Made by a program: the position numbers and the translations under genes. Shown here piece after piece: positions 32,657 through 63,936 of a DNA stretch of 64,000 nucleotides; position 1 is the first letter of the stretch, and each line of letters begins with the position of its first letter. Origin of the DNA: a virus. The notes below the pieces were generated by a model. That model searched no databases, was not told the origin of the DNA, and was given only the letters and a program-made list of their open reading frames with translations. The stretch is taken from IMG/VR virus record IMGVR_UViG_3300042197_004918, positions 62,001 to 126,000 of that record, one strand, 5' to 3'.

Positions 32657-32684
32657 AATGTAACACGGATATTCGAGGTGTCAA
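32657..32684 (-). promoter_or_regulatory. Sigma70-like promoter of the cREC-kinase unit
   Basis: Minus-strand TTGACA (32679-32684), a 16-nt spacer and TACATT (32657-32662); the -10 ends 9 nt before the ATG. The -35 overlaps the stop codon of the upstream DUF1553 gene. Confidence 0.75.
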
Positions 32685-35600
32685 TTAACAAAAACCATCT
32701 CGTTGCTTAATATAAGAATGTGAGTGTATCTTTCCCAACTATTAAGCTCTCTGTCAGATTTTTTAAGAGGTCCTTTGAAGTCTAACTTTGAATCCCAGGT
32801 TACAGGGGTGAGTGAATCTGCGTCTTTGACCTCGGATACCTTTACTGCCAGTGTGTAATCTTTATTAATATTGGTTTCGTTAGACATAACGAACTCCAAT
32901 TTATCGTTTACAGCAAGAGTGACGTTGAAATTGAAAGGAACCTCCGTTGTTGGGTTTATCGAAACCTTGTTTTGAAAGACGCCATTTTTATAAACCAACA
33001 GTTGTGAGGATTCTCCAACGCGACCTTTCGCTCCAACTGACCCTGAAACTGTGAACGAACCGTTTCTAGGAGAAATCCACTGTCTCACTGATTTTATGGA
33101 TGGGTTTTTCGACAACGTTCCACCATTTCTGGTCACTGTTACCCCTTTGAAGAAGTCGTTGGTTGAACCATAGACCTCTTTATCAAACTTTTGAAACTCG
33201 AAGAACGAGGAAGAACTTCTGGCATCGGAAACACGATACCCATATCTCCAATTGTATTCTTTTTTCACGTCCGACATATCCTCTTTCATTGCACTTTCGA
33301 TGTATCGGATTCCGATTTTAATCTCCAAGTCAGATGGTTCACGTTGAAAGCAGATTCTATACAAAGTCCTGATTCTCTCTTCCTCGGTTATAATACGGGT
33401 GAACTCTGGTCGAGTGACCATGTTTCTTACCTGTTCTATCACCATCGCATTGTTCATTAAAAACAATGCCTGTTTTGGAACGGTTGTCTGGAACCTTTTT
33501 CCTGTGGTCATTTCCGGGGTGGCAAAGTCAAACGTGGTAAAAACCTCCGGTAGGCGACCTCTATCAACCAAACCGTAAACGGTTCTTCTCGTGGAATACT
33601 CCCCACCATTGGCGGCAACAAGATTAACACCCTGTCCTCCCATGTTAGTATCCAATTTTCCTCCAAGGAATAGAATCGTGTCTCTAAGAGTCTCGAAATC
33701 CAATCGAGTGTTGTTCATCTTCCAATAAAGCCTGTTGTAAGGGTCAACCAACGATTTCTTTCCGTCACCATTCGATACTTGCCGGTAAGTCGAAGAAGAC
33801 ATGATAAGACGGTGCATATCCTTAACCGACCAACCGCTCTTTATAAATCTATCCGCAAGGTAGTTCAGAAGGTCGTAGTGAATTGGCTGTGGAGTGTTTA
33901 TTCCGAAGTCATCTACTGACGTTACCAATCCTTCACCGAAATGAAACTGCCATATTCTATTGACGATGACACGCGGAGTCAGTGGGTTCAACGGGTGAGC
34001 TATGGTTTTTGCTAGCTCAAGCCGACCACTTCCGTTTGTAAATGGGTTGGCGTTGAGATAATCGAACGTCGTAATGAAACGCCTTCCTACCACCGGCCCA
34101 CGAGTTCCTGGGTCACCCTTGATTAGCACCGCCGAGTCAATTGCACGAGGTTTGTCACCGATTACCATTGCTCTTGCCGGAGTGAACGGGTGGTTAATCT
34201 CGTGAGTTATTAGTTTCCCACGTTGCTGCCTAAGTTCGTTATCATATTGCATCGTTTTCTGATTACTACTATAGAACCTCGAAAACGAATCTCGGTCTAT
34301 ATCAAGAGGTCCACCATTTTTAAAAATTGCTGATGAGAATGCTTCCAATCCAACTATATTCGTCGGTGTAGTATTCACGGCCAAGACGGCATTGTGATAT
34401 GCGGATGCCAAATCTCTCATATTCTTTATCACGCCGATTTTCTTTATGTGAGACAGAAGGTATGGGTTAGTGTTTTCAGAATTCTCCGATAGGAATGTTG
34501 CGAATTCATCTTTAAATTTACCGTCTTCCACGTTAAACATCGTTCCGAACGGTAGAAACACCGCCGACTTTGGATTTGTCGTGGCGGATTTCGTTCCTTT
34601 TGGTGTGGATTGAACGGCCACGCCTGCGTCACTTGAAACCACCGTCAATTCCATTCCACCCCTCATATTAGGCGTCCGGACATTTATCATAGATGTCCAT
34701 CGTTGAATCATCCTTACATTCAAGCCGGAATCTCGAATGTAATCCGTCCTATTTGAAGATGCTACGGAATTTAGAGCGTATCCACCGTATATGTTTTTGA
34801 AAGTGTTTGTTCTAAATTCTGTCAGTGCCGCCAGATGCCGAGAGTTTATGAAACTTTCGATTTCTCCTTCTATCGTATTTCGTTTGTTTAGATAATCCTT
34901 GTAACCACCCGTCTCTGATACCGGGTTCAGAAGAGGTTTTTCGGAATCACTTGGAAAATAGGAACTATTCATCACGCCATGTAGAGCGTAATAATCTTTT
35001 GTGCTTACGGGGTCGAACTTGTGGTCGTGACAACGGGCACAAACAACTGTCGTGGCCATAAACCCCTTAAATATTACATCTATTTGGTCGTCGATAATGT
35101 CATTGGCGTTTCCAGAGTTCTTACCGAGCGTCAAGAATCCAAGACCTGCCAAATCCGGCTTCTTGATGTCGTTCAATCTGTCTCCTGCTATCTGTTCCAG
35201 TATGAATCTATCAAAAGGTTTATTCTCATTAAAACTTCGGATTACATAGTCACGGTAGGTGTATGAATATGTGTAACGGGGCTCTCGGTTTCCATTCACC
35301 GTTCCAGTGGTGTCACTGTATCTTGCGGTGTCGAGCCAGTGGCGACCCCACCGTTCACCATACATGGGATTGTCTAAAAGTCTATCCACTAATTTAACGT
35401 AAGCATCCGGAGAAGAATCTTTAAGGAAGTTCTCAACCTCTTTTTCAGTCGGAGGCAATCCGATTAGGTCAAAATATGCTCTACGAATGAGGATTTTCTT
35501 GTCAGCTATCTGTGAAGGCATCAAATTTGTTTTGGATAGTTCCGAAAAAACAAAGTTGTCGATGGGATTGGCAATCCACTTGCTTTTTGAAGTCGGAGGC

Positions 35601-36043
35601 ACCGGCTTGATTGGTAATGGAGCATAGGCCCAATGTTTCTTTGCTTCCGCATTGACATCCACGGTTTTAATCTTATCAATTCTCGGATCAGCCGCTCCAC
35701 TCTTCACCCATGCCTCAAAATCAGAAATGATTTGCGGAGAGAGCTTTCCATCCGGAGGCATTTGAAGGTCTTTATCTGAATATCGTATCGCCTTGATTAA
35801 TAAACTCTGTTCCAAGTCATTAGGAACGACAGCAGGACCATTCTCCCCACCCTTTAGTGTGGATTCCTGATTGTCAAGTAAAAGTTGTCCCTTGGCCTTT
35901 TTGTGTTCAGCGGAGTGACACTTGTAACACTTCTCCACTAGAACGGGCCGAATCTTCTTTTCAAAGAAATCCGACTCGTCTTTGGTTATTCCGTTTACAG
36001 ATATTGCGCACAGAAGTGCGACGAACGTTAAAATTCTCTTCAT
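32681..36043 (-). CDS. Planctomycete-type cytochrome-DUF1549-DUF1553 protein
   Basis: 1120 residues from the ATG encoding MKRILTF. Signal peptide (1-18), then a PSCyt1 c-type heme domain with CYKCH (39-43) and an axial-Met candidate in LQMPP (Met95). DUF1549 follows (about 160-380: IDNFVFSELS, RRAYFDLIGLPPT, MYGERWGRHWLDTARY) with a second CARCH at 335-339. DUF1553 runs from about 675 (NPLTPRVIVNRIWQFHFGEG, PEVFTTFDFATPEMTTGKR) to the typical ending ERYTHILILSNEMVFVN, with a beta-sandwich inserted near 980-1080. It is full length and shows no decay. The family is exported; its biochemical role is not established. Confidence 0.93.
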   Translation of the reverse strand: MKRILTFVALLCAISVNGITKDESDFFEKKIRPVLVEKCYKCHSAEHKKAKGQLLLDNQESTLKGGENGPAVVPNDLEQSLLIKAIRYSDKDLQMPPDGKLSPQIISDFEAWVKSGAADPRIDKIKTVDVNAEAKKHWAYAPLPIKPVPPTSKSKWIANPIDNFVFSELSKTNLMPSQIADKKILIRRAYFDLIGLPPTEKEVENFLKDSSPDAYVKLVDRLLDNPMYGERWGRHWLDTARYSDTTGTVNGNREPRYTYSYTYRDYVIRSFNENKPFDRFILEQIAGDRLNDIKKPDLAGLGFLTLGKNSGNANDIIDDQIDVIFKGFMATTVVCARCHDHKFDPVSTKDYYALHGVMNSSYFPSDSEKPLLNPVSETGGYKDYLNKRNTIEGEIESFINSRHLAALTEFRTNTFKNIYGGYALNSVASSNRTDYIRDSGLNVRMIQRWTSMINVRTPNMRGGMELTVVSSDAGVAVQSTPKGTKSATTNPKSAVFLPFGTMFNVEDGKFKDEFATFLSENSENTNPYLLSHIKKIGVIKNMRDLASAYHNAVLAVNTTPTNIVGLEAFSSAIFKNGGPLDIDRDSFSRFYSSNQKTMQYDNELRQQRGKLITHEINHPFTPARAMVIGDKPRAIDSAVLIKGDPGTRGPVVGRRFITTFDYLNANPFTNGSGRLELAKTIAHPLNPLTPRVIVNRIWQFHFGEGLVTSVDDFGINTPQPIHYDLLNYLADRFIKSGWSVKDMHRLIMSSSTYRQVSNGDGKKSLVDPYNRLYWKMNNTRLDFETLRDTILFLGGKLDTNMGGQGVNLVAANGGEYSTRRTVYGLVDRGRLPEVFTTFDFATPEMTTGKRFQTTVPKQALFLMNNAMVIEQVRNMVTRPEFTRIITEEERIRTLYRICFQREPSDLEIKIGIRYIESAMKEDMSDVKKEYNWRYGYRVSDARSSSSFFEFQKFDKEVYGSTNDFFKGVTVTRNGGTLSKNPSIKSVRQWISPRNGSFTVSGSVGAKGRVGESSQLLVYKNGVFQNKVSINPTTEVPFNFNVTLAVNDKLEFVMSNETNINKDYTLAVKVSEVKDADSLTPVTWDSKLDFKGPLKKSDRELNSWERYTHILILSNEMVFVN

Positions 36044-36062
36044 ATTTTGTAACACCTTTAGT

Positions 36063-37451
36063 TTAGGCTATGACCGGCTTTGCAACTTCACCAAATACAT
36101 CGGTGAGTCTGAAATCTCTTCCATTGTATCGGTAATTGAGTTTTTTGTGGTCAAATCCAACGAGATGTAAAATTGTTGCGTGAAGGTCGTGAATAGACAT
36201 TTTATCGGTGACAACTTGAGCACCGAGTTCGTCAGTCTCACCATAAACCGTTCCGCCCTTGACGCCGCCACCAATAAGAACGGATGACATGGCTCTGTTC
36301 CAGTGACTTCTTCCGAATCCGTTAGGGCCACCAACACCGTCTCTTGATGGAGTTCTTCCAAATTCACCGGTCATCACGATAAGGGTCGAGTCGAGCAATC
36401 CACGGTCTTTTAAATCTTTGATTAAAGCAGCTATTGGACCATCAACTTGGTCAGCAGCATTCTTGAGAGAACGACTGATTCCATCATGGGTATCCCATCC
36501 GCCAGTCCAAACTTGAACGAAGCGAACGCCCTTTTCAACCAACCGTCTAGCAATCAACATTTGTTTGCCTTGGTTTCCGGTTCCATACGAATCTCTAACC
36601 GAGGCAGGTTCCTTGCTGATGTCGAATGCATCCGTGGCTTCGGTCTGCATCTTGAACGCCAATTCAAAGGATTGAATCCTTGCGTCGAACGCTTCATCTT
36701 TTTGAAAGTTTTGGCGATGGAGTTCGTTGAGAGCTGAAAGTGTATCCAACTGACTACGTTGTTCTTTCAATGATGCGTATTGACTCTTGATGTTTTGAAT
36801 CATTCGGTCAACTGAACCCAACGAGGTATCAATTGGTGTTCCTTGATACATACCGGGCAGAAACGCGCTTCCGAAGTTTTGTGTTCCTCCGGTGGGCATT
36901 CCACCACTACGTAGGCTTATGAAAGATGGGAGATTGTTGTTTCCACTACCCAAACCATAAACTACCCAAGCACCGAGGCTTGGTCGGACGAGCCGGAGAT
37001 TTCCGGTATTCATCAGTATCGTGGCTGTCTCGTGCGCCGGGACATCGGTTGTCATGCCACGGAGAACAGCAGCGTGGTCAATATATTGAGCGGTCTTACT
37101 GAAAACTTCACTTACTTCGATTCCACTCTTACCACTTTTGATAAATTTGAAAGGTGAACCACAGGCCAATCCATTTACACCCGGCATCGGCTGTCCGTCC
37201 ATTTCAACCAACTTTGGCTTCGGATCCCAAGTGTCAATGTGCGACTGACCACCGCTGAAAAATATATGAATGACGTGCTTGGCCTTAGCAGGAAAGTGTG
37301 TCGGTAGAGATTCTGCCGCACCAAGGGAATTTTCAAACAATGAAGCCGCTCCGAGCATTCCCATTCCCATTCCAAATCGTGAAAGGAACTGTCGCTTGGT
37401 CATAATTAAGTCGGTGGGCTTTACTTGGTCTTGGTTGCAGTATTCTTTCAT
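36063..37451 (-). CDS. DUF1501 protein (alkaline-phosphatase/sulfatase fold)
   Basis: 462 residues. TKRQFLSRFGMGMGMLGAAS near residue 18 is a Tat-like signal with KR in place of RR. HVIHIFFSGGQSHIDTWDPK, VPAHETATILMNTG, VQVWTGGWDTHDG, TLIVMTGEFGRTP and SIHDLHATILHLVGFDHKKL are DUF1501 hallmarks, including metal-ligand Asp/His residues. It lies 20 nt upstream of the cytochrome-DUF1553 gene and shares its promoter. The two families are commonly paired in Planctomycetes and Verrucomicrobia. Confidence 0.93.
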   Translation of the reverse strand: MKEYCNQDQVKPTDLIMTKRQFLSRFGMGMGMLGAASLFENSLGAAESLPTHFPAKAKHVIHIFFSGGQSHIDTWDPKPKLVEMDGQPMPGVNGLACGSPFKFIKSGKSGIEVSEVFSKTAQYIDHAAVLRGMTTDVPAHETATILMNTGNLRLVRPSLGAWVVYGLGSGNNNLPSFISLRSGGMPTGGTQNFGSAFLPGMYQGTPIDTSLGSVDRMIQNIKSQYASLKEQRSQLDTLSALNELHRQNFQKDEAFDARIQSFELAFKMQTEATDAFDISKEPASVRDSYGTGNQGKQMLIARRLVEKGVRFVQVWTGGWDTHDGISRSLKNAADQVDGPIAALIKDLKDRGLLDSTLIVMTGEFGRTPSRDGVGGPNGFGRSHWNRAMSSVLIGGGVKGGTVYGETDELGAQVVTDKMSIHDLHATILHLVGFDHKKLNYRYNGRDFRLTDVFGEVAKPVIA

Positions 37452-40013: not shown

Positions 40014-40268
40014 TTATCTGTATTTTAAACACAAGACTAAGTTTAATGCAGCCAGTGTAGTAAATATTATATTACTTACTAAAAAATGATAAGGAATCGG
40101 AACTGTTGTGACGGAAGATAGGCACGCGAAAATATTTCCAAATAAAGCGATAACACAAGAGGATGGATTTATATCTTTTGTACTCTTTGTTTTTAAAATT
40201 TGTAATATCTGCGGAACATTACACGTTATAAAACAAATTGTCATTAATAATACGAATATCTCTGTCAT
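40014..40268 (-). CDS. SemiSWEET/PQ-loop-like membrane protein
   Basis: 84 residues with three hydrophobic helices. The first helix ends in CNVPQILQILKTKSTKDINP, the PQ-loop signature (PQ followed by TKS), and the second carries SSCVIALFGNIFAC. Size and topology fit SemiSWEET transporters, which dimerise to move sugars across the inner membrane. The gene overlaps the upstream gene by 4 nt. A viral sugar channel is an inference from the motif. Confidence 0.72.
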   Translation of the reverse strand: MTEIFVLLMTICFITCNVPQILQILKTKSTKDINPSSCVIALFGNIFACLSSVTTVPIPYHFLVSNIIFTTLAALNLVLCLKYR

Positions 40269-40867
40269 TTTTCTTGAAAATAACTAGGTTTCAAATCATA
40301 AAACATCCACTCTTGACTCTGTGATTCGCTCCCAGAACCCTTTCCGTCCTTCCCACCTTTTTGACCGGGAAACCCTTTTCCATCTTTTTGTCCCTGACCG
40401 TCAGCAAAACCCTTCGTTAGAGTGCCTCTGACCATTTGCCCACGTTGGGTCCGTTTTATGACGCTTCGTTCTTCGCCCTTTGATAACTGTTCGTGTAGTT
40501 TTCGACTGTATGGTAATCCAAACAATCTAGGTTCACTATCCTTGACATTGTAACCAAAAAGGTTAAGAGTATATTCGTTATATTTTACGGTGGGCTGTTC
40601 TACTAAGAACCAGATTCCTCCTTGTTCGTTGTTAATTTGGTTTGGCTCTTTCACCACGACGGACCTAATACTTAATATCTCTGGCAAAGCCCTCGGCGGT
40701 GCTCCCCATCCAAGAAATGAAATCGTCGAATTGTAAAATGCCACGGTGAAGAATGAAAATCCCAAAATTAACAGAACTTTTAATTGCCACTTAACATTCG
40801 ATGACGCTAACACCCAGAAACTAAGTGAGAAAAGACAGAGGAGAAGAATGGATAATGAGACACTCAT
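40265..40867 (-). CDS. Membrane protein with low-complexity tail
   Basis: 200 residues. Two N-terminal hydrophobic helices (LSILLLCLFSLSFWVLA and VLLILGFSFFTVAFY), a globular region about residues 60-145, and a Gly/Lys-rich tail (GFPGQKGGKDGKGSGSE). No family is recognised. It begins 1 nt before the YopX paralogue end and overlaps the SemiSWEET-like gene. Confidence 0.6.
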   Translation of the reverse strand: MSVSLSILLLCLFSLSFWVLASSNVKWQLKVLLILGFSFFTVAFYNSTISFLGWGAPPRALPEILSIRSVVVKEPNQINNEQGGIWFLVEQPTVKYNEYTLNLFGYNVKDSEPRLFGLPYSRKLHEQLSKGEERSVIKRTQRGQMVRGTLTKGFADGQGQKDGKGFPGQKGGKDGKGSGSESQSQEWMFYDLKPSYFQEK

Positions 40868-40868
40868 A

Positions 40869-41255
40869 TTAAGGTTTATCGAAAATATTTCCTACAACTT
40901 CATACCGCTTTATAGCACAAGTCAAGTGACCTATACAAATTTTGTAATCAATGTCAAACAAAATCCACGAACAGTCGCCCCAACGGATTTCTGCGTTTAT
41001 GATGTTCGACATATCGGATGCAAGGGGATATTTGATTATATCCCCTTCGTAAATTTCTTTTCCATTCTTGTCCTTCACCCCGGTGAATTGTTGAATCACG
41101 TATCTGATTTCATCAAGAACATACCCACCTTTAATATACCATTCCCCCGAGTTAGAGTATGTCAAATCAATATCGTCATAATCATTACCCGTCCACGGAA
41201 TTATAAAGTGGTTTTCCTTTTTATCCCAAACTCGTAGTTTTAATCTGTGACTCAT
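40869..41255 (-). CDS. YopX-family protein, second copy
   Basis: 128 residues: RLKLRVWDKKENHFI, then YVIQQFTGVKDKNGKEIYEG with DIIKY, and YEVVGNIFDKP at the C-terminus. A clear YopX domain and paralogue of the 39579-40001 gene. Its function is not known. Confidence 0.82.
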   Translation of the reverse strand: MSHRLKLRVWDKKENHFIIPWTGNDYDDIDLTYSNSGEWYIKGGYVLDEIRYVIQQFTGVKDKNGKEIYEGDIIKYPLASDMSNIINAEIRWGDCSWILFDIDYKICIGHLTCAIKRYEVVGNIFDKP

Positions 41256-41497
41256 ATATTTTTAAATCCGCAGTCGTGACAAATATACCCATCCCACGCC
41301 GACTCTCCGCACTGGGGACATTTTTCAAGTTCTATTTCTGGTTCCTCGTCAACGTTACATTCAACCGCAGGAGCCTTTAGAAACCCAACGATTTCTTCAA
41401 GAATAGTAACTAATTCCTTAGTATCGGTCGGTCTTTCAAAGGTGACGGACGTTCCGAGGATTTCTTCGTTGTTGAATTTGATGGAAATTCTGTTCAT
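41252..41497 (-). CDS. Small zinc-ribbon protein
   Basis: 81 residues: a beta-rich N-terminus and a C-terminal CPQCGESAWDGYICHDCGF zinc ribbon. The ATG overlaps the YopX start region by 4 nt downstream. A 57-nt gap upstream contains no clear promoter. Possible nucleic-acid or protein-binding adaptor. Confidence 0.62.
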   Translation of the reverse strand: MNRISIKFNNEEILGTSVTFERPTDTKELVTILEEIVGFLKAPAVECNVDEEPEIELEKCPQCGESAWDGYICHDCGFKNI

Positions 41498-41554
41498 TTT
41501 TTGTGCAAGTAGTATTCGGAAACCGAGTCTGATTTTACTTCGTTAGAAAGGTAT

Positions 41555-41770
41555 CTAAATCCTCACCCAAAAGGTTTCGTATTCGTATTCGTATGTAGAA
41601 CTAAACCAATGTTTCTTTTTAGTTGGTCGTCTGCTACTTTCAATGGAACGATGTAATCCACCGTCAAAAAACCTTACCGTTCCCTCCACGATGGATTCTT
41701 TAGACCTCCACGGATATTCGTCTCCGCTTCTGGTATAAATTTCATCTAAGATTGAAGTTTTCATAAGCAT
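41555..41770 (-). CDS. Hypothetical protein, 71 residues
   Basis: Starts 2 nt after the ExbD-like stop. A basic, aromatic-rich C-terminus (KKKHWFSSTYEYEYETFW). No family or membrane segment is recognised. Confidence 0.5.
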   Translation of the reverse strand: MLMKTSILDEIYTRSGDEYPWRSKESIVEGTVRFFDGGLHRSIESSRRPTKKKHWFSSTYEYEYETFWVRI

Positions 41771-41771
41771 T

Positions 41772-42359
41772 TCAGTTATCCTTCACGTTCTGCGCTACAA
41801 ATGATTGCATACTGTTTATGTTACTCACTTTTCCATCTTTGTCGAGTGTAAAACGAAAGAAAGTGGTTTCATCACCGGCAGTTATCATCATATTTGTCTT
41901 GACGATGACCTCTGCATGAGGTTTCATTTTGACCAACTTTATTATCACAGGAGTAGGAGTGGTATCTGTTTTCCGATAGACATGACAGTTAGCGATGTAT
42001 TCTCCCGGAGTGATTCCTCTAATGGCAATGACTTCTTGGTTGAAATCCAACTGTGTCCCTTGTTGATTTTGAGAATATCCGAGGTTATCATGGTTCAGAT
42101 TCATCAAAGAGCCGTCGCCGCCTTCTCTACGTTTGAATCCAACGATATGTCCCTCCGAGTCACTTGCCCATAAATCCATGTCGTCATTCGACTTAGAAGG
42201 CCACTCCATAACGAGAGTGTATGCGGCTTGAAATGATTGCGTAGGTGTAGAATCTTTAACTCTGTGATTCACCACAAGAATAATTGCCAAACAACATAGA
42301 AGAAGTGAAAATAACACGTCCAAAAATGGAGTCATTGATTGATTGGATTTGTATGTCAT
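41772..42359 (-). CDS. ExbD/TolR-like protein with a beta-sandwich periplasmic domain
   Basis: 195 residues. The single N-terminal helix SMTPFLDVLFSLLLCCLAII closely follows the ExbD/TolR helix, with the proton-carrying Asp (residue 14). The periplasmic part is not the usual ExbD fold: it has WPSKSNDDMDLWASDSEGHI, LNHDNLGY and ITPGEYIANCHVY, a pattern of YfaP/DUF2135-like beta sandwiches. It probably partners the TolQ/ExbB-like protein at 43666-44142 in a proton-driven complex. It overlaps the deacetylase by 4 nt. Confidence 0.72.
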   Translation of the reverse strand: MTYKSNQSMTPFLDVLFSLLLCCLAIILVVNHRVKDSTPTQSFQAAYTLVMEWPSKSNDDMDLWASDSEGHIVGFKRREGGDGSLMNLNHDNLGYSQNQQGTQLDFNQEVIAIRGITPGEYIANCHVYRKTDTTPTPVIIKLVKMKPHAEVIVKTNMMITAGDETTFFRFTLDKDGKVSNINSMQSFVAQNVKDN

Positions 42360-43054
42360 AATTTTGAAAGTTTTTCCGCGACATTCCCAAAGGTGTCCGT
42401 GACTATTTCCGACTTTTTAGATGAGAGGTAGTTTAAGAGATTGTTATGAGTCTCCGTGGAAACTGACATATTTCCTTCGCCTATTCCATGAAAGTATAAA
42501 ACCAGCCAGCCTCCGTCTCCGATAGCATTAACTCTATCAACTAAGTCACCCGCACGGGAGGCTTCCACGCCGGGTATCTCAAATCGTGTATTTCGGATGT
42601 GTTCCTTGGCATCGGAACCATACATTGTTCCACCACCAGCGAGTCTAGCAAATTTATGAAATTTCGATACAACGTGAATGTATGATGCCTCGAATTTTCC
42701 CATTGTCGTGATTCCACAGGGATATGCGAATGACGGGACGGAAGAACAACCAAGTTCCATTATGGCTTCGACGCCTCTGGATATTTCTCTTTCTATTCCA
42801 GACTCTCCCAATTCCTCAAAAGTGTTTCCTGACACCGCCCACCTAGCCTCCTTCGGACCGGGGTGAGAGAATGTGTGATTGGCGATTTCATGGTCGCTTT
42901 TCATCACATCTTTCCACCTTGATTCGTTTTTTCTGAAACCGGAAGTTCCCGTATTAACAAAAAACGTCCCTCTCAATTTTCGAGAACTTAGTTCCATAAC
43001 CGCCCTAAAATGGCTCTGTAATGCGTCGTCGTATGTTAGTGAAACGTAAGTCAT
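42356..43054 (-). CDS. NodB-type polysaccharide deacetylase
   Basis: 232 residues. SLTYDDAL (motif 1 Asp pair), HEIANHTFSHP (metal His pair), SFAYPCG (motif 3) and WLVLYFHGIG (motif 5 His) give the CE4 deacetylase core in order. It would remove acetyl groups from peptidoglycan or another glycan. There is no signal peptide, so it acts in the cytoplasm or is released at lysis. Overlaps neighbours on both sides by 4 nt. Confidence 0.82.
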   Translation of the reverse strand: MTYVSLTYDDALQSHFRAVMELSSRKLRGTFFVNTGTSGFRKNESRWKDVMKSDHEIANHTFSHPGPKEARWAVSGNTFEELGESGIEREISRGVEAIMELGCSSVPSFAYPCGITTMGKFEASYIHVVSKFHKFARLAGGGTMYGSDAKEHIRNTRFEIPGVEASRAGDLVDRVNAIGDGGWLVLYFHGIGEGNMSVSTETHNNLLNYLSSKKSEIVTDTFGNVAEKLSKL

Positions 43055-43296
43055 AAGTCTTTTTCGGTCAATCTATTAACCGTGGATAGGATTGTTGATT
43101 TACATTCGTCATTATCAGCGGGCACCCAGTCTGGATGTCCATCACACAATTTCGCAGCTCTCAACATCCCTTCTTTAATTGCATCAATCTGAATCTGTTT
43201 GATAATAAACGAATACTCACTCTGCATCAACGGATAGCCATCTTGTCTATCAATCGCTGCTCCTATTTGTTTTGCCCAGTCTTCTGCGGGTTTCAT
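43051..43296 (-). CDS. Hypothetical protein, 81 residues
   Basis: The start is set at ATG 43296 (MKPAEDWAKQIGAAID), 5 nt after the upstream stop; a longer frame to 43443 runs through the upstream gene. Soluble, helical, with two cysteines. No family is recognised. Confidence 0.55.
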   Translation of the reverse strand: MKPAEDWAKQIGAAIDRQDGYPLMQSEYSFIIKQIQIDAIKEGMLRAAKLCDGHPDWVPADNDECKSTILSTVNRLTEKDL

Positions 43297-43300
43297 AGAG

Positions 43301-43663
43301 TTATTGCCTTTCTGCCCAATCCCACGCCCAAATCCAAGCTCCGATTGTCGCCAAAAACCCAGCCAAATAGTGAAACGGTGTAGGAGACTCCTTGTATGCG
43401 TGCCATAGAGATGACAAAGCAAGGAAAGCAAGGAATAATACAACGATTAGAACGAAGCATCCGATGACCAACATTGTTCCGCTAGTAATAAGTTCGGCGA
43501 CAATTTTTCTCCAACTTTGTTTTTTTAGATATGCGAAGTAATTTTTCATATTATTTGTCAGTAGCTTAGTCCCTCTTAAAAAGTATCCATAGATCACTAA
43601 TCCGATATACAAAACCACAAGTGTTCCTATTGCTATAATAAATTCCAACATTTCATCACTCAT
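43301..43663 (-). CDS. Three-helix membrane protein
   Basis: 120 residues with hydrophobic helices at about 8-28, 58-84 and 97-113, and a Lys/Arg-rich loop (YLKKQSWRK). It lies 2 nt downstream of the TolQ/ExbB-like gene. No family is recognised; it may be a further subunit of the envelope cassette. Confidence 0.62.
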   Translation of the reverse strand: MSDEMLEFIIAIGTLVVLYIGLVIYGYFLRGTKLLTNNMKNYFAYLKKQSWRKIVAELITSGTMLVIGCFVLIVVLFLAFLALSSLWHAYKESPTPFHYLAGFLATIGAWIWAWDWAERQ

Positions 43664-43665
43664 AA

Positions 43666-44142
43666 TTAATCCTTCATCGAATACTCAGCAATAAACATCT
43701 GCAATCTGAGAATCAAATTTGCGACCATCCCGACAAGGGTAGGAATGAAAGCCGTGCTAAGACCATTCTTAATCGCGCCTATGAGAGAATTAACATCGCT
43801 GCCCATACCGAGGAACATCATAACGAGGCCGACGATGGTGGAGAGAAGCCCGAGGTCGAAACATATCTCCGAAGCGAATCTCACTAATCCTATCTCTTTT
43901 AAGATAACATCTTTTTCGGGATAATACGCAGAGGAACATCTATATGTTGCGTTCCACACATCAATTTCTTTTGATACTTTCCCCATTAAACACGCCGCTG
44001 CCGTGGCAACTGCAATGATGACGAATCCTAAATAAGAGCTGTCGTATTTAAGAAGCCCTGTGAATGCTCCGGCTTTTCCTGCGAAGTAACATCCGACTGT
44101 TGTAGATGCCATTATGATTGTCCAACGTGTGAATATTTTCAT
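43666..44142 (-). CDS. TolQ/ExbB/MotA-like proton channel subunit
   Basis: 158 residues from ATG 44142, since the longer frame runs into the upstream gene. Helices 1-2 are at about 10-50; the last two contain FDLGLLSTIVGLVMMF and LSTAFIPTLVGMVANLI, matching the conserved GLLGT and AL-TTxxG helices of the MotA/TolQ/ExbB family. It is shorter than ExbB (about 240). With the ExbD-like gene in the same unit it suggests a proton-driven envelope machine. Confidence 0.72.
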   Translation of the reverse strand: MKIFTRWTIIMASTTVGCYFAGKAGAFTGLLKYDSSYLGFVIIAVATAAACLMGKVSKEIDVWNATYRCSSAYYPEKDVILKEIGLVRFASEICFDLGLLSTIVGLVMMFLGMGSDVNSLIGAIKNGLSTAFIPTLVGMVANLILRLQMFIAEYSMKD

Positions 44143-44146
44143 TATC

Positions 44147-44971
44147 TTAATTATTGGTTCTAGTTGTCGGTGTATTTGTGACTCCGATAAAATTGTTTGT
44201 AGAGAACCTAAACGGGAAACCATTGGTTCCTTCTGGAACCATAAAAAGTTTAACAATAGGTCTGATTGGGTCGCCCATATAGTCTCGATTGTAGTGCCAC
44301 GGCGGGTTTATACCCGATTCATACGCTACCTTCTCAATCATCTTAGAATAAGGCTTGTTGGTGAATCTGTCAAGGTGGAACGAATAGAAATTGCTTACAG
44401 TAAGTTGGCAATATAAATCGAACGACATATCAATGGGTCGTTCAATTTTAGCTCTGACCGTATGTTCTACGTCAAGATTGCTTGCGTGAAGACACTCGTG
44501 AATAACAGTGCTTCCGAAATCTCTCATCGCATTCAAGTCGTGAATACTAGGCGGTTTCAGTGACGTGGTTATTGCGATAAACGCCCTCCACGGTTCTCTA
44601 TATTGATGGAACACTGTCATTCCAAGAAGGGAGTTGTTGGTTCCCATGCTTGTCAACATATCATCCGACCAATACATATTTTTGTAATCTACATTGTATT
44701 TGATTCCAGTGATGTTCTCCATAAACGTGACTGCGAGTTGAGCCACAGCAACATCTTGTGTAGAAAACTTTCGTGAAAACGTCCAATCTACACCAGCAAA
44801 TTCGTCGTTTTCTCGTGGGACATTGATTTTTACTGCTGACATCCTCTTGCCGGTTACGTTTTCTAATTGAATCGGTGTTCTAGGGTCAGCGACCGTAGTA
44901 AATGACTCTGGTTTTTCTTTACATCCTAGTAAAAATAGGAGCCCAATAATAGTTAATGTAACGATTTTCAT
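44147..44971 (-). CDS. Lipoprotein with HExxH zinc-peptidase motif
   Basis: 274 residues. Lipoprotein signal MKIVTLTIIGLLFLLGC (Cys17). FGSTVIHECLHASNLD about residue 150 has the HExxH zinc motif (HECLH). FRFSTNNFIGVTN near the C-terminus. An exported lipid-anchored metallopeptidase is likely; the family is not recognised. It is the first gene of the envelope cassette, only 5 nt before the TolQ/ExbB-like gene. Confidence 0.68.
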   Translation of the reverse strand: MKIVTLTIIGLLFLLGCKEKPESFTTVADPRTPIQLENVTGKRMSAVKINVPRENDEFAGVDWTFSRKFSTQDVAVAQLAVTFMENITGIKYNVDYKNMYWSDDMLTSMGTNNSLLGMTVFHQYREPWRAFIAITTSLKPPSIHDLNAMRDFGSTVIHECLHASNLDVEHTVRAKIERPIDMSFDLYCQLTVSNFYSFHLDRFTNKPYSKMIEKVAYESGINPPWHYNRDYMGDPIRPIVKLFMVPEGTNGFPFRFSTNNFIGVTNTPTTRTNN

Positions 44972-62717: not shown

Positions 62718-62791
62718 GCGGGTATGATGTAATGGTAGCCTATAACTTTGCCAAAGTTGATGCGAGGGTTCGATTCCCTTTACCCGCTCCA
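62718..62791 (+). tRNA. tRNA-Gly (GCC)
   Basis: Acceptor GCGGGTA/TACCCGC, discriminator T, encoded CCA. Anticodon GCC at 62750-62752 in a TTGCCAA loop, T-arm GAGGG/CCCTT with TTCGATT. All arms are present. Confidence 0.9.
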
Positions 62792-62887
62792 GTAAATTGT
62801 TGTGTAAGTGGATTTAACCACCTTGACAACGGATATAAACCCCTTAACTGGGTTTTCCAATGTAGTCACAACGATTTATCAATTAAT

Positions 62888-62961
62888 GCGGAATTGTTGT
62901 AATGGTAGCGATTCTGATTTACACTCAGACAGAGGGGGTTCAATTCCCTCATTCCGTACCA
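62888..62961 (+). tRNA. tRNA-Val (TAC)
   Basis: Acceptor GCGGAAT/ATTCCGT (first pair G-U), encoded CCA, anticodon stem TCTGA/TCAGA with TAC at 62920-62922, T-arm GAGGG/CCCTC. The 96-nt gap before it contains an AACCC/GGGTT hairpin with a short T-run, possibly a terminator or processing site. Confidence 0.9.
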
Positions 62962-63052
62962 ATTAATTTGTTAACAAAGAAAGCCGAAACCCTTCTGGTA
63001 TGGGAGCGTTTTTATCGGGGGTAAAAGTCCCAACTATCACCGCATTTTCAAT

Positions 63053-63129
63053 GGCCCCGTCGTCTAAGGTGGGTAGGACTTTTGATTCTCAATCAAAGAA
63101 ACTCGGTTCGACCCCGAGCGGGGCTACCA
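63053..63129 (+). tRNA. tRNA-Glu (CTC)
   Basis: Acceptor GGCCCCG/CGGGGCT, encoded CCA, anticodon stem TTTGA/TCAAA with CTC at 63088-63090. The D-arm (TCGTCTAAGG) is typical of glutamate tRNA. Confidence 0.9.
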
Positions 63130-63386
63130 AATTTAAGGCAAAGCATCCTTTAATCCCAAACCGCACGTAAAGCGGGGATGGAAGCTTGACAGCTGGAGAG
63201 AAAGCACCAATTTTAATGGTCGGCGTATGACACCTCTACAACGGGTTGCTCTGTTGAACAGTGAATAATTACGAGGATCCCCGGCCGCCAACTTAAATCA
63301 CGGAAGTTAGGGTTCGAGGTCCTTGGGTCTTCTTGTAGGGAGGACACTTAATGTAAGTGGAAGCATACCGTGATTTGAAGTTTTTT
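63130..63386 (+). other. Non-coding stretch with folded RNA elements
   Basis: No gene is supported in this 257-nt stretch. It holds an ATCC/CCGC...GCGG/GGAT hairpin near 63149-63180, and the three-way element at 63295-63376. No protein reading frame of note. Confidence 0.5.
63295..63376 (+). ncRNA. Folded 82-nt RNA element
   Basis: AAATCACGG (63295-63303) pairs perfectly with CCGTGATTT (63368-63376). Between them are a GAAG...CTTC arm enclosing AGG/CCT and a CACTT-AATGT-AAGTG hairpin, giving a three-way junction. It is not a tRNA: no anticodon arm in the right place and no CCA. Confidence 0.45.
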
Positions 63387-63461
63387 GGGGGATTAGTGAT
63401 AATGGTAGCACGACTGATTTGCACTCAGTAGGTACTGGTTCGATTCCTGTATCCTCCACCA
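63387..63461 (+). tRNA. tRNA-Ala (TGC)
   Basis: Acceptor GGGGGAT/ATCCTCC, encoded CCA, anticodon stem ACTGA/TCAGT with TGC at 63420-63422, T-loop TTCGATT. All arms present. Confidence 0.9.
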
Positions 63462-63462
63462 A

Positions 63463-63535
63463 CCGTTCGTAGGATAATGGCTATTCCGCCTGCTTTGGGA
63501 GCAGGATATTGTGAGTTCGAGTCTCACCGAGCGGA
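63463..63535 (+). tRNA. tRNA-Pro (TGG)
   Basis: Acceptor CCGTTCG/CGAGCGG, discriminator A; the following bases are CAG, so CCA is not encoded and must be added. Anticodon stem CCTGC/GCAGG with TGG at 63496-63498. Confidence 0.88.
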
Positions 63536-63543
63536 CAGCGTAG

Positions 63544-63595
63544 CGCCGGGTTGGGTATTGCTCCAACGGTAATGTGTTAGTGTTAACGCCCGGCG
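63544..63595 (+). ncRNA. Folded 52-nt element between tRNAs
   Basis: CGCCGGG (63544-63550) pairs perfectly with CCCGGCG (63589-63595). Inside are TTGG...CCAA and GTTA-GTGT-TAAC arms. It looks like a tRNA-sized fold missing its T-arm; it may be a decayed tRNA or a separate small RNA. Confidence 0.4.
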
Positions 63596-63604
63596 GTCAC
63601 GTAT

Positions 63605-63678
63605 GCTCAAGTGATGTAATTGGAAAACATCTTTGTCTCAAAAACAGAGTTTTGTGGGTTCAACTCCCACCTTGAGCA
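63605..63678 (+). tRNA. tRNA with CAA anticodon (Leu-type codon) but short variable loop
   Basis: Canonical cloverleaf: acceptor GCTCAAG/CTTGAGC, D-stem ATGT/ACAT, anticodon stem TTTGT/ACAGA, loop CTCAAAA with CAA at 63639-63641, T-arm GTGGG/CCCAC. The bases after the discriminator read CCG, so CCA is incomplete. Leucine tRNAs normally have a long variable arm; this one has 5 nt. Confidence 0.75.
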
Positions 63679-63680
63679 CC

Positions 63681-63760
63681 GTTCAGTTGATGAAAATCGT
63701 AGGGAAACATCTGGGACGAAAATCTCGGTTTTGTAGGTTCGACTCCTACACTGAACACCA
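63681..63760 (+). tRNA. tRNA-like gene with abnormal anticodon arm
   Basis: Acceptor GTTCAGT/ACTGAAC and T-arm GTAGG/CCTAC are perfect and CCA is encoded. The anticodon arm (63711-63728) can only pair with wobbles: CTGGG/CTCGG leaves an 8-nt loop ACGAAAAT, while TGGGA/TCTCG leaves 6 nt. GAA (Phe) is the most likely triplet, with C rather than U before it. Probably altered or decaying, or a non-standard decoder. Confidence 0.6.
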
Positions 63761-63764
63761 TAAT

Positions 63765-63839
63765 GGTCACGTAGCCCAATTGGCAGGAGGCGCAACGTCG
63801 AGAACGTTGACAGTGTGAGTTCAAATCTCACCGTGACTA
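63765..63839 (+). tRNA. tRNA with GAG anticodon and C33
   Basis: Acceptor GGTCACG/CGTGACT, anticodon stem CAACG/CGTTG, loop TCGAGAA (63798-63804). The triplet GAG lies at 63800-63802, but position 33 is C instead of the near-universal U. Short variable loop, T-arm GTGAG/CTCAC. CCA is not fully encoded (CCG). Confidence 0.72.
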
Positions 63840-63848
63840 CCGTATTTT

Positions 63849-63936
63849 GGGCAAGTATCCAAATGGTGAAGGAGACTGACTGTAAATCAGTTGCCATGTG
63901 CTAAACTTACAGGTTCGAGTCCTGTCTTGCCCACCA
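63849..63936 (+). tRNA. tRNA-Tyr (GTA), class II
   Basis: Acceptor GGGCAAG/CTTGCCC, encoded CCA, anticodon stem ACTGA/TCAGT with GTA at 63882-63884, and a long variable arm of about 20 nt as expected for bacterial tyrosine tRNA. Confidence 0.92.

What the first reader, a model, noticed from the sequence alone, without database searches (positions are those of the whole stretch)
41772..44971. A phage-encoded TolQ/ExbB-ExbD-like pair inside an envelope cassette
In one tightly packed leftward run: an HExxH lipoprotein (44147-44971), a TolQ/ExbB-like subunit (43666-44142), a three-helix protein, a NodB deacetylase (42356-43054) and an ExbD-like protein with the conserved TM Asp (41772-42359). The ExbD-like protein has a YfaP/DUF2135-like beta sandwich instead of the usual periplasmic domain. 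Together they could form a proton-driven machine acting on the cell wall or outer membrane, for lysis, exclusion of other phages or envelope remodelling. This is the best candidate for an undescribed system.
Basis: partly seen in the sequence, partly recalled or inferred. Interest (0 to 1): 0.86.

Follow-up and report, generated by a model that had tools for sequence, protein, structure and literature searches.

The report
Three-gene phage proton-motor module
This phage carries a widespread but undescribed three-gene set that looks like a proton-powered motor of the inner membrane; the same three genes, in the same order, sit in many marine phages, in rhizobium phages and in bacterial chromosomes, yet no family database names two of the three proteins.

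Summary
The ExbB-like protein (A, 43666-44142) passes Pfam MotA_ExbB. The ExbD-like protein (B, 41772-42359) is in no ExbD family, but has one TM helix with a near-invariant Asp and a confidently predicted beta sandwich. A third subunit was missed (C, 40265-40867: two TM helices, small domain, tail). A-B-C is the conserved unit: same order in 85 of 86 loci of the first search (viral contigs and rhizobium phages) and in 43 of 43 loci from bacterial genomes. B occurs in 32 of 274 and 39 of 289 sampled genomes of two proteobacterial classes. The NodB deacetylase and three-helix protein are local insertions; the HExxH lipoprotein is shared with one sister phage only. Viral copies form their own large clade. 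Best reading: a PMF-driven inner-membrane motor of MotA/ExbB type with a new periplasmic head and an extra subunit, acting on the host envelope or on transport across it. Lysis or superinfection exclusion is possible but has no positive support. No family model, and no paper found in the held library, describes it. Stoichiometry, proton flow and function are inferred.

The parts
43666..44142 (-). Subunit A: MotA/TolQ/ExbB-family channel subunit, 158 aa, four hydrophobic cores
   Evidence: PF01618 30.0 bits, above cut-off; four cores and short positive loop; hhalign to E. coli ExbB E 2.3e-5
41772..42359 (-). Subunit B: ExbD-like axle, 195 aa, TM helix with Asp14 plus periplasmic beta sandwich
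   Evidence: 67% identical relative L002; 27 rhizobium phage records; AlphaFold pLDDT 89; Asp in 101 of 102
40265..40867 (-).
   Evidence: A-B-C order in 85 of 86 loci; fold pLDDT 73; tail motif 68 of 102 versus 22.8 in shuffles
44147..44971 (-). Accessory: HExxH lipoprotein, 274 aa, shared with the sister phage only
   Evidence: 63% identical in L002 directly before A; no other viral relative found
42356..43054 (-). Insertion, not part of the conserved module: NodB-type polysaccharide deacetylase
   Evidence: PF01522 E 1.8e-12; absent from all other fetched loci
43301..43663 (-). Insertion, not part of the conserved module: three-helix membrane protein
   Evidence: no family at its cut-off; no homologue in any other fetched locus
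43051..43296 (-). Insertion: small ORF between the three-helix protein and NodB
   Evidence: ORF; no homologue elsewhere
40869..41770 (-). Insertion between B and C: three small genes, the last one YopX-like (40869-41255)
   Evidence: ORFs; YopX PF09643 E 1.6e-17; absent between B and C in L002

Best explanation
A, B and C are the three subunits of one proton-driven inner-membrane machine of the MotA/ExbB type. Shown: A belongs to the MotA/ExbB family; B has one TM helix with a near-invariant Asp and a predicted beta-sandwich head; C has two TM helices and a small domain; the three genes stay together in fixed order in very different phages and in bacteria. Inferred: A forms the ring and a B dimer the axle; protons pass by way of B Asp14 and A Thr102, Thr130 and Thr135; movement is passed on by B's head and C's tail to a partner in the periplasm or outer membrane, which in the bacterial version is often a lipoprotein encoded right after C. 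In phages the machine most likely keeps up or alters a host envelope function (energised transport or envelope integrity) during infection rather than causing lysis.
For: A passes PF01618. ExbB Thr148 and Thr181 line up with invariant A Thr102 and Thr135. B Asp14 in 101 of 102, in register with ExbD Asp25. Sandwich fold of B, pLDDT 89. A-B-C order in 85/86, 77/80 and 43/43 loci (exceptions are contig ends). Distances of A, B and C correlate among viruses (r 0.80, 0.70, 0.68), as expected also from shared descent alone. Lipoprotein gene within 10 bases of C or overlapping it in 13 of 45 bacterial loci. Long-lived viral clade. dN 0.27-0.29 with saturated dS between window and sister, so all three and the lipoprotein are under purifying selection.
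Against: B is in no ExbD family and the TM match is weak. ExbB Glu176 is replaced by Thr in A. No lipoprotein neighbour in most phages. No complex was predicted and nothing was assayed. Neighbours in phages and bacteria do not converge on one function.
Confidence: 0.5

Rival explanations
1. Energised uptake: the module powers import of a nutrient, cofactor or peptide across the outer membrane, with C as a TonB-like tether, and phages carry it as an auxiliary metabolic function.
For: SbmA/BacA peptide transporter genes beside the module in 8 of 50 non-redundant, mostly viral, loci; PQQ-dependent dehydrogenase genes near 10 and PQQ-type ABC transporter genes near 11 of 45 bacterial loci; C has a hydrophilic linker and conserved end motif. 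MccJ25 needs TonB-ExbB-ExbD and SbmA (PMC3652737 abstract).
Against: No TonB domain in this record; no receptor gene seen next to the module; SbmA absent from this record; neighbours vary.
Confidence: 0.22
2. Lysis machine: the proton channel collapses or uses the PMF to time or drive lysis.
For: Phage-borne proton channel; lysozyme gene within 4 kb in RHph_X2_25; Peptidase_M15 beside the module in 2 loci.
Against: Most loci have no lysis gene adjacent; the module is in bacterial chromosomes; late-promoter motif upstream of A in only 3 of 43.
Confidence: 0.08
3. Superinfection exclusion or Zorya-like defence against other phages.
For: A weakly matches ZorA2 models (E about 1e-6).
Against: Scores are far below the ZorA cut-off (27.7 against 700 bits); A lacks the long ZorA tail (158 aa against 550 positions); B and C match no defence model; no other defence gene adjacent.
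Confidence: 0.1
4. The first reader's five-gene envelope cassette, including NodB and the three-helix protein, acts as one machine.
For: The genes are tightly packed, with NodB and B overlapping by four bases.
Against: The sister phage has lipoprotein-A-B-C without NodB or the three-helix protein; no other relative has them; NodB has no signal peptide in its sequence.
Confidence: 0.04

Closest known systems
Ton system ExbB-ExbD(-TonB)
   Same: A shares the last two TM helices and proton-path threonines with ExbB; B has the TPFxDV TM motif and one TM helix.
   Different: B's periplasmic domain is a beta sandwich, not ExbD's; no PF02472; no TonB found; a third subunit C; A has four TM cores, not three.
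MotA-MotB stator
   Same: Four TM cores and loop charge pattern in A; best solved match is a MotA, E 0.0033.
   Different: Much shorter cytoplasmic loop; B has no peptidoglycan-binding domain; no flagellar context.
Zorya ZorA-ZorB
   Same: A weakly matches ZorA2 models.
   Different: No long ZorA tail, no OmpA-like domain in B, no other Zorya gene; scores far below cut-off.
PHROG 1735 and DUF2135 (unknown function)
   Same: 11 of 44 B homologues match PHROG 1735 (best E 2.7e-5); one matches DUF2135 (E 3e-4).
   Different: The window's own B matches neither at E 0.01; neither family has a known function.

Membership tests
MotA/TolQ/ExbB proton channel family (PF01618) | Score above the curated cut-off | tested here: met
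   30.0 bits against 22.9; 40 of 40 relatives match at E 0.01
ExbD/TolR family (PF02472) | Score above the curated cut-off | tested here: not met
   no match in B or its 43 relatives, nor anywhere in the record; control genomes ring
ExbD/TolR family (PF02472) | Single N-terminal TM helix with conserved Asp | tested here: met
   helix 10-31; Asp14 in 101 of 102
Ton system | TonB force transducer | tested here: not met
   no TonB_C in the record (the record may be incomplete)
MotAB stator | OmpA-like peptidoglycan-binding domain in the B subunit | tested here: not met
   B has no Pfam match to it; beta sandwich instead
Zorya | ZorA above the model cut-off | tested here: not met
   27.7 bits against 700
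DUF2135/YfaP beta sandwich | Profile match | tested here: inconclusive
   1 of 44 relatives at E 3e-4, not the window's B; sandwich fold predicted
Ion-driven motors with five A around two B | 5:2 assembly with ion flow coupled to movement | not testable with these tools
   no complex prediction and no assay available

The most novel reading that the evidence does not exclude
An undescribed class of proton-driven inner-membrane motor, made of a four-TM A subunit, an axle with a beta-sandwich head and a new third subunit with a tethered tail motif, exists both as a bacterial chromosomal system and as a long-separate phage lineage that phages use to run the host envelope during infection.
Probability: 0.45. 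Interest if true: 0.82.

Novelty: new variant of a known kind. Interest (0 to 1): 0.66.

Why it matters
Ion-driven motors of this kind are known for flagella, outer-membrane transport, cell division, gliding and phage defence. In the passages searched of two papers on their diversity (PMC12505986, PMC9389320) no phage-encoded example appeared. If phages have long kept their own version, infection must need an energised envelope function that the host does not supply well enough. Rhizobium phages, including the laboratory temperate phage 16-3, carry it, so it can be tested now. The bacterial version turned up in roughly one in eight sampled genomes of two proteobacterial classes, and two of its subunits have no Pfam or NCBIfam model.

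Tried and rejected
Searching with the window's A alone found no relatives in viral contigs or phages; the way in was B. A PDB profile search with B found nothing meaningful; Foldseek of C nothing credible; Foldseek of B only weak sandwich matches in the PDB and some uncharacterised viral proteins. The HExxH lipoprotein has no Pfam, PDB or wider viral relatives. A common lipoprotein neighbour in phages was sought with a simple lipobox rule and not found (1 of 169 near, 6 of 442 far). A trypsin-like protease near the module in some rhizobium phages and two other viral contigs is local. Bacterial copies as hidden prophages: four copies (L247-L250) share with 16-3 and X2_25 only the module itself, among chromosomal-looking genes, and nearly all other bacterial copies form a separate clade, so rejected for most. 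Late promoters upstream of A: 3 of 43, too few to call timing. dS was saturated, so no dN/dS ratio is given.

Full report
What was checked. The window is bases 62001-126000 of a 173,817-base virus record. A (43666-44142) passes the Pfam MotA_ExbB cut-off and NodB passes Polysacc_deac_1; B (41772-42359), the three-helix protein and the HExxH lipoprotein match no Pfam family at its cut-off. PHROGs has nothing significant for any of them.

The real unit. A alone finds no relatives in the viral collections, but B does: one close relative at 67% identity (L002, a 164-kb viral contig) and 27 rhizobium and sinorhizobium phage records, named 'hypothetical protein' except for 'p040' of phage 16-3. In L002 the order is lipoprotein, A, B and then a 191-aa membrane protein, contiguous. 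Its homologue in the window lies beyond three small genes after B, at 40265-40867: subunit C. The rhizobium phages have A, B and C side by side. Profile searches found 98 relatives of B in IMG/VR (80 kept), and with a narrower profile 131. Iterated profiles found A, B and C in this order in 85 of 86 loci, the exception being cut at a contig end, in 77 of 80 of a further set, the other three lacking one gene on truncated loci, and in 43 of 43 loci from bacterial genomes. NodB, the three-helix protein and the small ORF between them have no homologue in any fetched locus other than the window's own stretch, and NodB was not found in the sister record (no positive control). The lipoprotein occurs in the sister phage only.

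Anatomy. A: four hydrophobic cores with a short positive loop between the second and third, as in MotA; Thr102, Thr130 and Thr135 invariant in 40 homologues; hhalign aligns the last two helices with E. coli ExbB (E 2.3e-5), which puts Thr102 and Thr135 at ExbB Thr148 and Thr181, and Thr130 at ExbB Glu176 (ExbB roles from general knowledge). B: one TM helix (10-31), then a beta sandwich, pLDDT 89; Asp14 in 101 of 102 non-redundant homologues, and W53, D60, D62, L88, D91, G94 and E109 in all 102. The acidic set in the sandwich could bind a metal such as calcium; this is inference. The match to ExbD's TM motif is in register but weak. C: two TM helices and a small domain (pLDDT 73), no PDB match, a positive loop between the TM helices, which by the positive-inside rule puts the domain in the periplasm, then a hydrophilic linker and a terminal motif like FYDLP..PEK (68 of 102 against 22.8 in shuffles).

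Distribution and descent. B is present in 32 of 274 genomes of one class and 39 of 289 of another, drawn evenly. The centres are Parathalassolituus and Devosia loci, so by name Gammaproteobacteria and Alphaproteobacteria; some of the matches are weak. In a tree of A plus B the viral copies form one large clade (support 91, with one bacterial copy in it), apart from a bacterial clade; phage 16-3 and RHph_X2_25 group with a second bacterial lineage; window and sister sit together on a long branch (a quick tree with many open forks). So phages have carried their own version for long, with at least one further exchange between phages and bacteria.

Surroundings. In phages the neighbours vary: SbmA/BacA, ClpS and HSP20 in 8 loci each, glutaredoxin and acyl-carrier domains in 4, T4-type tail sheath stabiliser and Peptidase_M15 in 2; topoisomerase subunits and a late sigma factor in Pootjesviridae. 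In bacteria a lipoprotein follows C within about 10 bases, or overlaps it, in 13 of 45 loci; others have a VWA-FHA protein, a DUF302 protein and an L,D-transpeptidase; PQQ-dependent dehydrogenase genes lie near 10 and PQQ-type ABC transporter genes near 11. This points to work at the periplasm and outer membrane, but to no single substrate.

Mechanism and doubts. The best reading is a PMF-driven inner-membrane machine of the MotA/ExbB kind with a new head and a third subunit. What is shown stops at family membership of A, the TM Asp and predicted fold of B, and the conserved trio. Stoichiometry, proton flow, contact and function are inferred. Uptake, exclusion and lysis remain possible, in about that order. 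The bacterial B and C tested belong to no Pfam or NCBIfam family. Literature searches in the held library found no description of a phage-encoded motor of this kind, which is weak evidence because most subscription papers and all preprints are missing.

Noticed in passing
window 32681-37451 (-): A PSCyt1/PSCyt2/PSD1 protein and a DUF1501 protein, a pair typical of planctomycetes and verrucomicrobia, lie inside this phage genome; the sister phage record also has DUF1501, so it is real phage cargo and hints at the host.
   Followed up: partly
L066:7545-8510 and seven other mostly viral loci: SbmA/BacA-like peptide transporter genes lie beside the module in aquatic phages.
   Followed up: partly
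L093:9109-9861 and 12 other bacterial loci: A lipoprotein family without Pfam or NCBIfam model follows C in a tight operon in bacteria.
   Followed up: partly
L088:7160-8059, L089:4511-5158, L004:7456-8148, L081:4030-4722, L079:9023-9679: A trypsin-like protease gene lies within a few genes of the module in some rhizobium phages and related viral contigs.
   Followed up: partly
window 40014-40268 (-): A small hydrophobic protein overlaps the end of C; by eye it resembles PQ-loop transporters; no significant PHROG match.
   Followed up: no
window 62718-63936 (+): A cluster of eight tRNA genes at the right end of the window.
   Followed up: no
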